A DNA stretch of 64,000 bases from Ochrobactrum vermis (GTDB lineage Bacteria; Pseudomonadota; Alphaproteobacteria; Rhizobiales; Rhizobiaceae), in NCBI RefSeq assembly GCF_002975205.1, contig NZ_PCOC01000002.1, forward strand, positions 883,001-947,000, read 5' to 3'. A program made the position numbers and the translations under genes. Positions 54,159 through 61,118 of the stretch are shown in pieces. Position 1 is the first letter of the stretch. Every line of letters starts with the position of its first letter. The notes beneath the pieces were generated by a model. That model saw nothing but the letters and a program-made list of their open reading frames with translations, was not told where the DNA came from and did not search any database.

Positions 54159-55421
54159 TTGTCCGACATCCTCCATTCCCTTCAGGCCCATTCATTCATG
54201 TCAAAAATTCAGCCTTCGGCTTCCGTGCCGGAAACTTCGCCGCGTTCGTCTATACGACTGGCGGAATTAGCGCTTGCCATCGGCGGCTTTGGTATCGGCA
54301 CCGGTGAATTCGCCATTATGGCGCTGCTGCCCGATATTGCCCGCGACCTCAATGTGACGATACCGCAAGGCGGGCACCTCATCAGCTCCTATGCGCTTGG
54401 TGTTCTGATTGGTGCGCCGGTGCTGGCCGTGATTGGCGCAAGGCTGGACCGTCGTAAGCTTCTCTTTCTGCTTATGGGGCTGTTCGCCTTTGGCAATCTC
54501 GCAAGCGCATTCATGCAGGACTATGCCGGTCTCTATATGATGCGGTTCGTTGCCGGTTTCCCGCATGGGGCCTATTTCGGCGTGGCTTCGCTTGTCGCTG
54601 CATCATTGGCGGAACCGGGAAAACGTGCGCAGGCTGTAGGGCGGGTGATGATGGGACTGACCGTCGCCACATTGTGCGGGACGCCGCTTGCGACTTCTCT
54701 CGGTCAGATTGCCGGATGGCGTGCAATGTTTGGCGCGGTCGGCTTGATTGCAATTCTAACCATGGTGCTGGTTGCGATCTATGTGCCCAAACAGCCTGCG
54801 GACGAGGGAGCGTCACCCTTGCGCGAACTGGGAGCGTTTCGCCGCAAACAGGTCTGGCTGACGCTCGGAATCGGTGCCATCGGCACGGGTGGCTTGTTTT
54901 CCGTCTTTACCTATGTCGCGGCGACAGTCACCGAGGTTTCTCATGTTGATGTGAAATGGATGCCTTTCGTGTTCGCCATGTTCGGTCTGGGCATGGTGCT
55001 TGGCAATATAGTGGGTTCGCGATTGACGGATCGCTCGGTCATGGGAACGGTTGGCCTGGTGCTGCTCTATGATATGGCAGTCATGCTGGTATTCCCCGTC
55101 CTCATGCAGCATCCGGTGACAGCATTTTTGAATGTACTTCTGGTCGGAGGCGGATTTGCGCTCGTCCCTGCCTTGCAGACGCGTCTGATGGATGTGGCGG
55201 CGGACGCACAGACGCTGGCCGCAGCCCTCAACCATTCCGCACTTAATCTTGCCAATGCATTGGGAGCATGGCTTGGCGGGCTGGCGGTTGCATGGGGTTA
55301 TGGCTGGACATCGACGGGTACAGTCGGTGCATTACTCGCATTGTCAGGTCTGGTCGTCTTCGCAATCTCGGTTGCGTTCGACAGGCGCGGTGCGGCGAGG
55401 CTCGCCTCGCAAGAAGTTTAA
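54159..55421 (+). CDS. MFS transporter, DHA1 (AraJ-like) family
   Basis: A 420-residue protein with 12 membrane segments. GFGIGTGEFAIMALLPDIA opens helix 1 and motif A is GARLDRRKLLFLL between helices 2 and 3; VGGGFALVPALQTRLMDVA lies in the second half. Relatives export sugars, arabinose-like compounds or drugs. TTG 54159 is chosen because AGGAG lies eight bases upstream; an ATG at 54198 gives a version shorter by 13 residues. It is followed by a strong terminator hairpin that also belongs to the antisense small RNA. Confidence 0.88.
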   Translation: MSDILHSLQAHSFMSKIQPSASVPETSPRSSIRLAELALAIGGFGIGTGEFAIMALLPDIARDLNVTIPQGGHLISSYALGVLIGAPVLAVIGARLDRRKLLFLLMGLFAFGNLASAFMQDYAGLYMMRFVAGFPHGAYFGVASLVAASLAEPGKRAQAVGRVMMGLTVATLCGTPLATSLGQIAGWRAMFGAVGLIAILTMVLVAIYVPKQPADEGASPLRELGAFRRKQVWLTLGIGAIGTGGLFSVFTYVAATVTEVSHVDVKWMPFVFAMFGLGMVLGNIVGSRLTDRSVMGTVGLVLLYDMAVMLVFPVLMQHPVTAFLNVLLVGGGFALVPALQTRLMDVAADAQTLAAALNHSALNLANALGAWLGGLAVAWGYGWTSTGTVGALLALSGLVVFAISVAFDRRGAARLASQEV

Positions 55422-55432
55422 GTACCCCACAA

Positions 55433-55572
55433 ACGAAAATACCCGTCGCGGGAGGAGGCGACGGGTATTTTATGGGGAAGACCGGACTTGGGAGGAGGAT
55501 ATCCGGTCTTGAATCACCGAGGGAATGGGAGGAGGAGAAAACCCCGGTGATATTCTGGAAACTGTAGGACCG
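55433..55572 (-). ncRNA. Three-hairpin CCUCCUCCC small RNA (alpha-r14/CcsR 'cuckoo' type)
   Basis: On the minus strand three consecutive hairpins each expose the nonamer CCUCCUCCC: stem 55545-55551/55513-55519 with motif at 55527-55535; stem 55502-55510/55478-55486 with motif at 55490-55498; and a 14-bp terminator stem 55458-55471/55436-55449 with motif at 55450-55458. The motif is complementary to Shine-Dalgarno sequences. CCUCCUCCC-bearing RNAs downstream of DUF1127 genes are known as CcsR in Rhodobacter and alpha-r14 in rhizobia; here a DUF1127 gene ends 57 bases upstream. CCCCAT at 55580-55585 with CTTCAA 11 bases before it resembles an RpoH promoter, so the RNA may also have its own start. 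The exact 5' end is not known. Confidence 0.82.
55436..55471. terminator. Bidirectional terminator shared by MFS gene and small RNA
   Basis: A 14-base-pair stem AAAATACCCGTCGC/GCGACGGGTATTTT with an eight-base loop. It lies 14 bases after the MFS stop on the plus strand, and forms the last hairpin of the minus-strand small RNA. Confidence 0.85.
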
Positions 55573-55628
55573 CGCGGTTATGGGGACTCGCGATCCTTGA
55601 AGAAGGCCAATGCCTTCCGAAGGCGCTA

Positions 55629-55775
55629 TTAGCGAGCAGCGGCCTTGCGTGCAACGAACGGGATTTCCGAAGCAAGAATGCCAAGGTCGTTCAGTTCGCG
55701 TGGGCTCAGGCGGCTCAGTTCATTTACCGTGTTACGGTAGCGGCGCCAATTGTTGTACGAGCGGATCAGGTTCAT
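55629..55775 (-). CDS. DUF1127 small basic protein (CcaF1/YjiS-like)
   Basis: A 48-residue basic protein reading MNLIRSYNNWRRYRNTVNEL then SRLSPRELNDLGILASEIPF and VARKAAAR. The RYRNTVNELSRLSPRELNDLGI region is the DUF1127 domain. In Rhodobacter a DUF1127 protein (CcaF1) is co-transcribed with CcsR small RNAs and behaves as an RNA-binding regulator. The ATG at 55775 has GGTGAGAG upstream. The same arrangement, with CCUCCUCCC hairpins just downstream, is seen here. Confidence 0.92.
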   Translation of the reverse strand: MNLIRSYNNWRRYRNTVNELSRLSPRELNDLGILASEIPFVARKAAAR

Positions 55776-56273
55776 TTCTCTCACCTAGTAAAATCTTATC
55801 TCTTTGTTGCAAACAGCATATAGGCTCGAAGCATTTCGAATTGGAGAGACAGATTTGCATAGCTGCAATGCGTTAAAGCTTGTCAATTGCACGCCTTTTA
55901 CGCAGCTTGGCCATCATGCCATCACAATCATCTGTCCAAGTGGGGAAATCGCCAGAATTCAGGCTGCTTCAGCGGCTAACTGGTTAAAACTTCTTTTAAA
56001 ATTTGCTTGCCGGGAAAGATCTCCACACAATGTGGCGGATAGAGATGCTCGTGAGGGTGTCGGGCGGGTAATTATGCGGTCTCGTCCGTGCCGTAATATG
56101 CGTGTATTATAGAGTATAGATCTGGACCTCCCGTCAGCTTTAGATTTTGTCGCAAAAGTCCGGGATATCGTCGGTTAGAGACAACAATTCCACATGACTT
56201 GCGCGCCGGATTGGGTTAAGGGAGTTTCGTCGGGTGTCGGGACGTCATGCTGAATGATGTTTTTGCACTGTCT
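55776..56273. other. Non-coding region between DUF1127 and the glycine riboswitch
   Basis: About 500 bases holding the divergent promoters for the DUF1127/small-RNA unit (a CTATAT box lies about 50 bases upstream of its ATG) and for gcvTHP. No convincing coding frame or other structure was seen. Confidence 0.5.
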
Positions 56274-56450
56274 GTCTGCGGGAGAGCGCCAACTGGCCGC
56301 CGAAGGGGAAATCGCCCGAAATCTCTCAGGTACAAGGAACCGCAGACGGGTAAGACAACTCTGGAAAGTCGGGGGAAACCCTGCGCCGAAGGTGTAAGTA
56401 TGGCTTTCTATATAGCCATGCGAGTCTCTCAGGCCTGAGACAGAGGGGCA
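56274..56450 (+). promoter_or_regulatory. Tandem glycine riboswitch upstream of gcvT
   Basis: Two adjacent glycine-aptamer-like folds. The first closes with GTCTGCG (56274-56280) and CGCAGAC (56341-56347) and contains GGGAGAGC, GCCGAAGGGG and the ATCTCTCAGG core. The second closes with CTCTGG (56360-56365) and CAGAGG (56441-56446), with GCGCCGAAGGTG and GTCTCTCAGGCC. The repeated GCCGAAGG and CTCTCAGG pieces are the conserved family core. It lies about 50 bases before gcvT, and would turn on expression when glycine is abundant. Confidence 0.93.
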
Positions 56451-56498
56451 CGAAGCAGCCGCATTTTGCGGAGGCACACGTGCGACTCTGGAGTTGTT

Positions 56499-61005: not shown

Positions 61006-61118
61006 CAAAAAAAGAGCCGGACTGAAAAGTCCGGCTAAGTTATGAAGGTGCCACATTGGGCAAACCTCCAGAGGGGAACACTTACCGCGCGCAATGGGAG
61101 GAGGCACAGCGGTAAGTG
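61006..61118 (-). ncRNA. Second CCUCCUCCC small RNA (anti-Shine-Dalgarno hairpin plus terminator)
   Basis: On the minus strand a ten-base-pair 5' hairpin (CACTTACCGC, 61109-61118 with 61079-61088) exposes CCUCCUCCC (61096-61104) in its loop. A middle stem GGAGGT/ACCTTC may form (about 61043-61068). It ends in an intrinsic terminator: AGCCGGACT-TTTC-AGTCCGGCT (61036-61015) and a T7 run (61013-61007). A promoter-like TTGAAG (61152-61147) and CATATC (61129-61124) with 17-base spacing places the start right at the first hairpin, giving an RNA of about 113 nt. No protein gene lies on this strand nearby. Confidence 0.78.

What the first reader, a model, noticed from the sequence alone, without database searches (positions are those of the whole stretch)
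55433..55775. DUF1127 gene followed by a three-hairpin CCUCCUCCC RNA
Seen: a 48-codon DUF1127 gene on the minus strand, then three hairpins whose loops each carry an exact CCUCCUCCC at 37-40 base intervals; the last is a 14-bp terminator that also serves the MFS gene on the other strand. Known: in Rhodobacter, CcsR RNAs with this motif are co-transcribed with the DUF1127 gene ccaF1, and the alpha-r14 rhizobial RNAs have the same anti-Shine-Dalgarno loops. Inferred: a stress-induced RNA and RNA-binding protein unit, with a possible RpoH-like promoter (CTTCAA-N11-CCCCAT, 55602-55580) for the RNA alone.
Basis: partly seen in the sequence, partly recalled or inferred. Interest (0 to 1): 0.85.

Follow-up and report, generated by a model that had tools for sequence, protein, structure and literature searches.

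The report
Small-protein gene with anti-ribosome-site RNA
A tiny gene and the three-hairpin regulatory RNA behind it form a known kind of bacterial unit, and its control site looks like that of a redox-sensing regulator rather than the heat-shock switch first proposed.

Summary
A 48-codon DUF1127 gene (55775-55629, minus) is followed by an RNA scoring 91.6 bits against Rfam ar14 (cut-off 58.8), with three exact CCUCCUCCC motifs; 28 of 29 predicted stem pairs co-vary across 35 ar14 RNAs. This is the published CIN1 arrangement (DUF1127 plus cuckoo/alpha-r14 RNA). The host is an Ochrobactrum-type Brucella.

The promoter inference fails: a loose form of the RpoH-like sequence occurs in 4 of 80 relatives and overlaps spacer hairpins. 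Instead a sequence two mismatches from the published VtlR box lies 80 nt before the ATG. A matrix of it scores 8 or more before DUF1127 in 74 of 80 relatives.

In 63 sampled ar14 loci, DUF1127-led RNAs have the site before the protein gene (33 of 35), never directly before the RNA (0 of 35); solo RNAs have it before the RNA (24 of 28). Best reading: one LsrB/VtlR-driven transcript from which the anti-Shine-Dalgarno RNA is processed. Binding, co-transcription and processing are inferred.

The parts
55853..55873 (-). Predicted LsrB/VtlR operator (21-nt site; 15-nt core CATTGCAGCTATGCA at 55870-55856)
   Evidence: 2 mismatches to the published motif CAATGCAGCCATGCA (motif from PMC12595884); on the plus strand it fits GCAT-N3-TG-N3-T (PMC7486931); matrix score 30.7 against a null 99th percentile of 8.0, but identical sites of close relatives are in the training set
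55818..55823 (-). Predicted -10 element CTATAT; start of transcription inferred near 55811
   Evidence: Sequence: 29 nt after the 21-nt site, as in 52 of the 61 relatives with CTATAT at no more than 1 mismatch. The sigma-70 consensus scan finds no promoter in 55350-56000
55780..55786 (-). Likely ribosome-binding site AGGTGAG of the DUF1127 gene
   Evidence: Sequence; seen in many of the 80 upstream sequences listed
55629..55775 (-). DUF1127 gene, 48 aa
   Evidence: PF06568, 55.8 bits; 100% identical protein in a Brucella pseudogrignonensis record
55566..55618 (-). Two predicted spacer hairpins (A 55618-55601, B 55597-55566), drawn in most of the Brucella-type sequences folded, with a variable loop in B; they overlap the proposed RpoH-like promoter
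   Evidence: Folds of the window, 27 relatives and 2 further own-genome copies
55434..55555 (-). ar14 (alpha-r14/cuckoo) small RNA, three hairpins
   Evidence: RF02344, 91.6 bits, model positions 1-123 of 123
55513..55551 (-). Hairpin 1 with CCUCCUCCC at 55535-55527
   Evidence: helix 1 of the alignment: 8 of 8 pairs with changes on both sides, 78.6% of cells paired
55478..55510 (-). Hairpin 2 with CCUCCUCCC at 55498-55490
   Evidence: 7 of 7 pairs with changes on both sides, 87.8% of cells paired
55436..55471 (-). Hairpin 3, 14-bp terminator-like stem with CCUCCUCCC at 55458-55450
   Evidence: 13 of 14 pairs with changes on both sides; not flagged by the consensus terminator scan

Best explanation
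The locus is one transcription unit of a known kind (CIN1: DUF1127 gene plus cuckoo/alpha-r14 RNA). The LysR-type redox regulator LsrB (called VtlR in Brucella) binds at about 55863 and turns on a promoter with its -10 at 55823-55818. One transcript runs through the DUF1127 gene and ends at hairpin 3. The roughly 120-nt three-hairpin RNA is released from the 3' end by processing, probably by RNase E as for CcsR in Rhodobacter, and its CCUCCUCCC loops block ribosome-binding sites of target mRNAs. The short basic protein acts in trans, either in RNA maturation (as CcaF1) or on sensor kinases (as reported for PhoR). Shown here by computation: gene, RNA, covarying structure, conserved operator-like site and -10 with fixed spacing before DUF1127, no such site directly before the RNA in DUF1127-led units, and a trxB-lysR pair in the genome. 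Inferred: that the site binds LsrB/VtlR, co-transcription, processing, targets and protein function.
For: Rfam ar14 91.6 bits. Covariation: 88.3% of cells paired against 67.0% shuffled and 36.7-43.8% slid; 28 of 29 pairs changed on both sides. In 35 ar14 loci (6 own, 29 best-per-genome from the family), 21 DUF1127-led: site directly before the RNA in 0 of 21, before DUF1127 in 19 of 21; 14 solo: before the RNA in 10 of 14. In 28 further loci of the genus: 0 of 14 and 14 of 14 for led, 14 of 14 for solo. Site at score 8 or more before DUF1127 in 74 of 80 relatives; CTATAT at no more than 1 mismatch downstream in 61 of the 74 (379 of 1480 shuffles), at 29 nt in 52. Consistency check: the same pattern lies 49 nt before one of two AbcR-type ar15 RNAs of this genome. 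A 301-aa LysR gene follows trxB on one strand, the arrangement reported for lsrB (PMC11975290, passages). VtlR activates three DUF1127 genes and AbcR2 in Brucella melitensis (PMC12595884, passages) and LsrB binds the nfeR1 (alpha-r14) promoter in S. meliloti (PMC10746234, section 5).
Against: No transcript, binding or processing data for this genome. Within the window alone the VtlR motif is not above chance (2 matches with up to 3 mismatches, 4.29 expected), and the degenerate pattern is not enriched genome-wide (13 against 12 for the reversed control); conservation and position carry the argument. The matrix was trained on sites before DUF1127 in relatives, so the DUF1127-side counts are partly circular; the solo-RNA counts are not. 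Loci are related by descent. Misses at the threshold: 4 of 14 family solo loci (L097, L099, L100; L103 at 7.9) and 2 of 21 family led loci (L107, L119). 16 of 80 relatives have the site but fewer than two CTCCTCC downstream, so it goes with the protein gene even where no RNA is evident. Of 24 site-bearing solo loci, 13 lack a CTATAT with at most 1 mismatch. One of the five high-scoring DUF1127 genes of this genome (C2:1054685) has no such site, and a fourth Brucella DUF1127 gene is reported without the motif (PMC12595884).
Confidence: 0.78

Rival explanations
1. One reading: the RNA has its own RpoH-like heat or oxidative-stress promoter at 55602-55580, independent of the DUF1127 gene.
For: CTTCAA-N11-CCCCAT is present; the Rhodobacter ccaF1-CcsR operon has an RpoHI/RpoHII promoter, though in front of the whole operon (PMC10253847, figure legend).
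Against: A loose form was found in 4 of 80 relatives; the -10 part falls in the variable loop of a predicted spacer hairpin; in 33 of 44 led units the RNA begins about at the stop codon; the S. meliloti alpha-r14 RNA NfeR1 has an RpoD-type promoter (PMC10746234, passage).
Confidence: 0.05
2. The three hairpins are mainly a 3' UTR and terminator that stabilises the DUF1127 mRNA; no separate trans-acting RNA is made from this copy.
For: Hairpin 3 is a 14-bp stem close to the MFS stop; some related copies have changed loops, and the own copy at C2:2259k keeps one exact motif.
Against: Loops are nearly invariant while stems vary by compensation, which fits base-pairing loops rather than a plain terminator; solo copies carry the same operator-like site with no protein gene; NfeR1 inhibits translation of mRNAs in trans in S. 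meliloti (PMC8844928, passages).
Confidence: 0.12
3. The operator belongs to another LysR-type or dimeric regulator, not LsrB/VtlR.
For: The site is a near-palindrome of general LysR type; the regulator was assigned from published motifs, not from binding to this DNA.
Against: Fit to two published VtlR/LsrB descriptions (for the papers); presence before an AbcR-type gene; trxB-lysR pair present.
Confidence: 0.1

Closest known systems
alpha-r14 / cuckoo RNA family (Rfam RF02344; NfeR1 of Sinorhizobium meliloti)
   Same: Three hairpins, CCUCCUCCC in each loop region, full-length Rfam match at 91.6 bits; LsrB-type site before solo copies as reported for nfeR1
   Different: NfeR1 is described with its own promoter; here the RNA sits behind a DUF1127 gene and the site is before that gene
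CIN1 locus: ccaF1-CcsR1-4 of Rhodobacter sphaeroides
   Same: DUF1127 gene followed on the same strand by CCUCCUCCC hairpin RNAs; arrays of several RNAs also occur (13 of 15 multi-RNA ar14 units are DUF1127-led)
   Different: CcsR1 model fails (18.2 bits against 65.3); the Rhodobacter promoter is RpoHI/RpoHII, here an LsrB/VtlR-type site with a CTATAT -10; CcaF1 is 71 aa, this protein 48 aa
VtlR-activated small DUF1127 genes of Brucella and atu1667 of Agrobacterium
   Same: Short DUF1127 gene with a VtlR box upstream
   Different: In the passages read no ar14 RNA behind those genes is mentioned; for atu1667 the authors leave open whether it acts as a small protein or a small RNA. Orthology of the window gene to a named Brucella gene was not tested

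Membership tests
alpha-r14 (Rfam RF02344) | Score above Rfam's gathering cut-off over the full model | tested here: met
   91.6 bits against 58.8, positions 1-123 of 123
alpha-r14 (Rfam RF02344) | Three hairpins, each with CCUCCUCCC, stems variable but paired | tested here: met
   in hairpin 3 the first C of the motif is paired
alpha-r14 (Rfam RF02344) | Expressed as an RNA of about 115-125 nt acting on ribosome-binding sites | not testable with these tools
   No RNA data for this genome
CcsR (Rfam RF02791) | Score above the CcsR1 gathering cut-off | tested here: not met
   18.2 bits against 65.3
CIN1 locus (DUF1127 plus cuckoo RNA) | DUF1127 gene directly 5' of cuckoo hairpins on the same strand | tested here: met
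   Window layout; conserved in relatives
CIN1 locus (DUF1127 plus cuckoo RNA) | Co-transcription and processing of the RNA from the precursor | not testable with these tools
   Indirect support only: no operator-like site at score 8 or more directly before the RNA in 35 of 35 led loci
LsrB/VtlR regulon | Published box GCAT-N3-TG-N3-T / CAATGCAGCCATGCA upstream | tested here: met
   2 mismatches to the 15-mer; fits the degenerate box on the plus strand; matrix 30.7. Motif count in the window alone is not above chance
LsrB/VtlR regulon | Regulator encoded in the genome, in tandem with trxB | tested here: met
   trxB at C1:1877065-1877982 minus, then a 301-aa LysR gene; best PDB match 9hh1, 490.6 bits, titled only LysR family
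LsrB/VtlR regulon | Binding and loss of expression in a mutant | not testable with these tools
   Bench work
RpoH regulon | Conserved RpoH-type promoter before the RNA | tested here: not met
   4 of 80 relatives in a loose form; variable loop

The most novel reading that the evidence does not exclude
One LsrB/VtlR-type control site serves both forms of the alpha-r14 RNA, directly in solo copies and through an interposed DUF1127 gene in CIN1 copies (57 of 63 sampled loci have it in one place or the other). So many alpha-r14 RNAs of the family are outputs of one redox-sensing regulator, and effects assigned to VtlR-controlled DUF1127 'small proteins' may partly come from the anti-Shine-Dalgarno RNA in the same transcript.
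Probability: 0.5. Interest if true: 0.6.

Novelty: new member of a known kind. Interest (0 to 1): 0.45.

Why it matters
DUF1127 proteins are reported both as RNA-binding and as sensor-kinase partners, and the two views conflict (PMC12501420, introduction and passages). If their genes share one transcript with an anti-Shine-Dalgarno RNA under a redox regulator, gene deletions may have hit two products at once, and separating protein from RNA becomes a direct test. The solo/led comparison also gives a simple rule for where the promoter of an alpha-r14 RNA should be sought.

Tried and rejected
RpoH-like promoter at 55602-55580: rejected, not conserved. CcsR membership by Rfam: not met. Self-targeting of the DUF1127 ribosome-binding site by the hairpin 1 loop: not special, duplex -9.9 kcal/mol; 23 of 74 raw ORFs of 200 aa or more (uncurated) score at least as well. 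A 3.3-Mb genome of the genus (G065) was looked at as a stand-in for classical Brucella and dropped: one of its contigs has the length, 40284, of the Falsochrobactrum ovis contig of L032, so classical Brucella was not tested. The genome-wide pattern CANNNCAGCYATGC is not enriched as such (13 against 12 reversed); only positions are informative: 4 of 13 lie 83-110 nt before a DUF1127 domain match on the same strand and 1 of 13 lies 49 nt before an ar15 RNA; the other 8 were not explained. For the linkage count I pasted all 142 ar14 rows (E up to 0.001, some under the curated cut-off) but only the 120 best DUF1127 rows, whose own list was also capped, so led units could be undercounted. The 63 loci are 6 own ar14 loci plus the best-scoring locus of 29 of 40 family genomes and 28 of 30 genus genomes with matches (those for which a locus was fetched), not all ar14 matches. 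Papers on the cuckoo family (PMC4615179), CcaF1 (PMC8034643) and the Brucella small proteins (PMC6112010) are not held; what I say of them comes from other papers that cite them. That no held paper was found to join LsrB/VtlR, DUF1127 and the alpha-r14 RNA rests on searches and on passages, not whole texts.

Full report
What is there. On the minus strand a 48-aa DUF1127 gene (55775-55629; PF06568 55.8 bits) is followed after 73 bases by an RNA that matches Rfam ar14 from end to end (55555-55434, 91.6 bits, cut-off 58.8). The three CCUCCUCCC copies are exact and spaced 37 and 40 bases. The fold is three hairpins, z -7.95. The stop codon of an MFS gene on the plus strand lies at 55421, just past hairpin 3. 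A consensus terminator scan did not flag hairpin 3, whose U run is paired in the stem, so the shared terminator is an inference.

Where it comes from. The window lies in contig C2 of a 5.4-Mb genome in three contigs. The identical protein occurs in a Brucella pseudogrignonensis record, and the next relatives are other Ochrobactrum-type Brucella, Falsochrobactrum, Pseudochrobactrum and Phyllobacterium. The genome has 6 ar14 RNAs and 8 DUF1127 matches. Three of the six ar14 RNAs follow a DUF1127 gene and three stand alone.

Is the RNA structure real? In an alignment of 35 ar14 RNAs (6 own, 29 best-per-genome from the family), 28 of 29 predicted pairs have changes on both sides. 88.3% of cells pair, against 67.0% in shuffles and 36.7-43.8% in slid versions. 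The motif columns are invariant or nearly so while the stems vary.

Is the gene-RNA link real? Of 80 DUF1127 relatives, 60 have at least one exact CCTCCTCCC within 500 nt downstream, 20 have none there, and 0 of 80 have one within 500 nt upstream. Searches of 41 family genomes gave ar14 in 40 and DUF1127 in 40. The 142 ar14 matches form 117 units. 44 of 117 have a DUF1127 match less than 300 nt upstream on the same strand, 9 have one within 300 nt downstream, and none has one within 300 nt on the opposite strand; 34 of 40 genomes have at least one led unit (using the 120 best DUF1127 rows). Arrays of two or more RNAs are led in 13 of 15 cases. This is the published CIN1 arrangement (PMC10253847, passages).

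What drives it? The proposed RpoH-like promoter (55602-55580) was found in a loose form in 4 of 80 relatives. In most of the Brucella-type loci folded the spacer forms two further hairpins, and the CCCCAT lies in the loop of the second, which varies. Upstream of the gene, CATTGCAGCTATGCA at 55870-55856 differs at two positions from the VtlR motif CAATGCAGCCATGCA quoted in PMC12595884, and on the plus strand fits GCAT-N3-TG-N3-T quoted in PMC7486931 and PMC8844928. By count alone such a match is not remarkable in the window; its conservation is. A 21-nt matrix from 28 unique sites of relatives (the window's own site is identical to some of them) scores 8 or more before DUF1127 in 74 of 80. The six misses are L065 and L066, which by eye follow another DUF1127-like sequence, and four Neorhizobium or Rhizobium loci. 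In 61 of the 74 a CTATAT with at most one mismatch follows (in shuffled sequence 379 of 1480), in 52 of them exactly 29 nt after the site; the window has the same spacing. PMC8844928 (passages) describes a similar layout for the abcR1 promoter, with the LsrB site at -61 to -49 and CTATAT as -10.

The comparison that decides. If the RNA had its own promoter of this type in DUF1127-led units, the site should lie before the RNA. In the 35 loci, 21 are led: 0 of 21 have a site directly before the RNA and 19 of 21 have one before DUF1127 (misses L107, L119). Fourteen are solo: 10 of 14 have the site directly before the RNA (misses L097, L099, L100 and L103, the last at 7.9). In 28 further loci of the genus, led units show 0 of 14 before the RNA and 14 of 14 before DUF1127; solo units show 14 of 14 before the RNA. 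The null was 2100 windows of 120 nt from the 35 loci, with a 99th percentile of 8.0 and a maximum of 19.2; the test windows were 130 nt. The solo counts are free of the training bias, the led counts are not, and loci are related by descent. The -10 is less uniform in solo units: of 24 with the site, 11 have CTATAT with at most one mismatch, 10 of these at 29-31 nt, and 13 do not.

The regulator. In this genome trxB (C1:1877065-1877982) is followed on the same strand by a 301-aa LysR gene, the arrangement reported for lsrB in Rhizobiales (PMC11975290, passages). Its best PDB match is 9hh1 at 490.6 bits, titled only as a LysR-family regulator; none of the 25 NCBIfam matches shown reaches its cut-off. 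The same operator pattern lies 49 nt before one of the two AbcR-type ar15 RNAs, consistent with abcR genes as reported VtlR/LsrB targets. That alpha-r15 is the AbcR family is recalled. In this genome 4 of the 5 high-scoring DUF1127 genes have the pattern upstream; C2:1054685 does not.

How it most likely works. LsrB/VtlR, a redox-responsive regulator, starts one transcript that encodes the DUF1127 protein and ends with the ar14 hairpins. The RNA is cut out, as reported for CcsR with RNase E and CcaF1 (PMC10253847, passages), and its loops cover ribosome-binding sites, as reported for NfeR1 (PMC8844928, passages). Binding, co-transcription and processing are inferred here. Whether the 48-aa protein helps RNA maturation or binds sensor kinases is open; both are reported for relatives (PMC12501420, introduction read, other parts as passages).

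Verdict. What is added is the regulator assignment and the rule that led and solo alpha-r14 units carry one kind of control site in different places. In the papers held I found the pieces apart (VtlR and DUF1127; LsrB and NfeR1; DUF1127 and cuckoo RNAs) but not joined (searches; passages, not whole texts). Papers not held may join them, for example one on LsrB-controlled small RNAs of Agrobacterium that appears in a reference list.

Noticed in passing
window 61009-61117, minus: An AbcR-type RNA (Rfam ar15, 65.4 bits) with an exact CCTCCTCCC. No match to the VtlR motif with up to 3 mismatches lies near it; GTTGAA-N17-CCATAT just upstream looks RpoH-like (by eye), as reported for abcR2 of S. meliloti.
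   Followed up: partly
window 56269-56352, plus: Glycine riboswitch aptamer (59.2 bits) ahead of the ORF at 56466, which looks like gcvT by eye (not searched); ordinary.
   Followed up: no
L050, L091, L110, L123 (relatives): Long tandem arrays with 8 to 11 CCTCCTCCC motifs downstream of a DUF1127 gene. In Mesorhizobium L065 and L066 the matched gene follows another DUF1127-like sequence (by eye).
   Followed up: partly
L004/L005, own genome C2:1855581-1856412: Two solo ar14 RNAs in divergent orientation, 586 bases between them, each with its own predicted operator.
   Followed up: partly
L068, L070, L071, L073-L076, L078, L079: Nine Neorhizobium/Rhizobium-type DUF1127 relatives with no exact CCTCCTCCC within 500 nt downstream; in 8 of the 9 the best operator score is below 14. 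So the protein gene can exist without an evident RNA.
   Followed up: partly
own genome C1:393933-394043, plus (L009): A DUF1127 gene with the operator starting 96 nt before the domain match but no exact CCTCCTCCC in the 3.1-kb locus; a solo ar14 lies 2.7 kb further on.
   Followed up: partly
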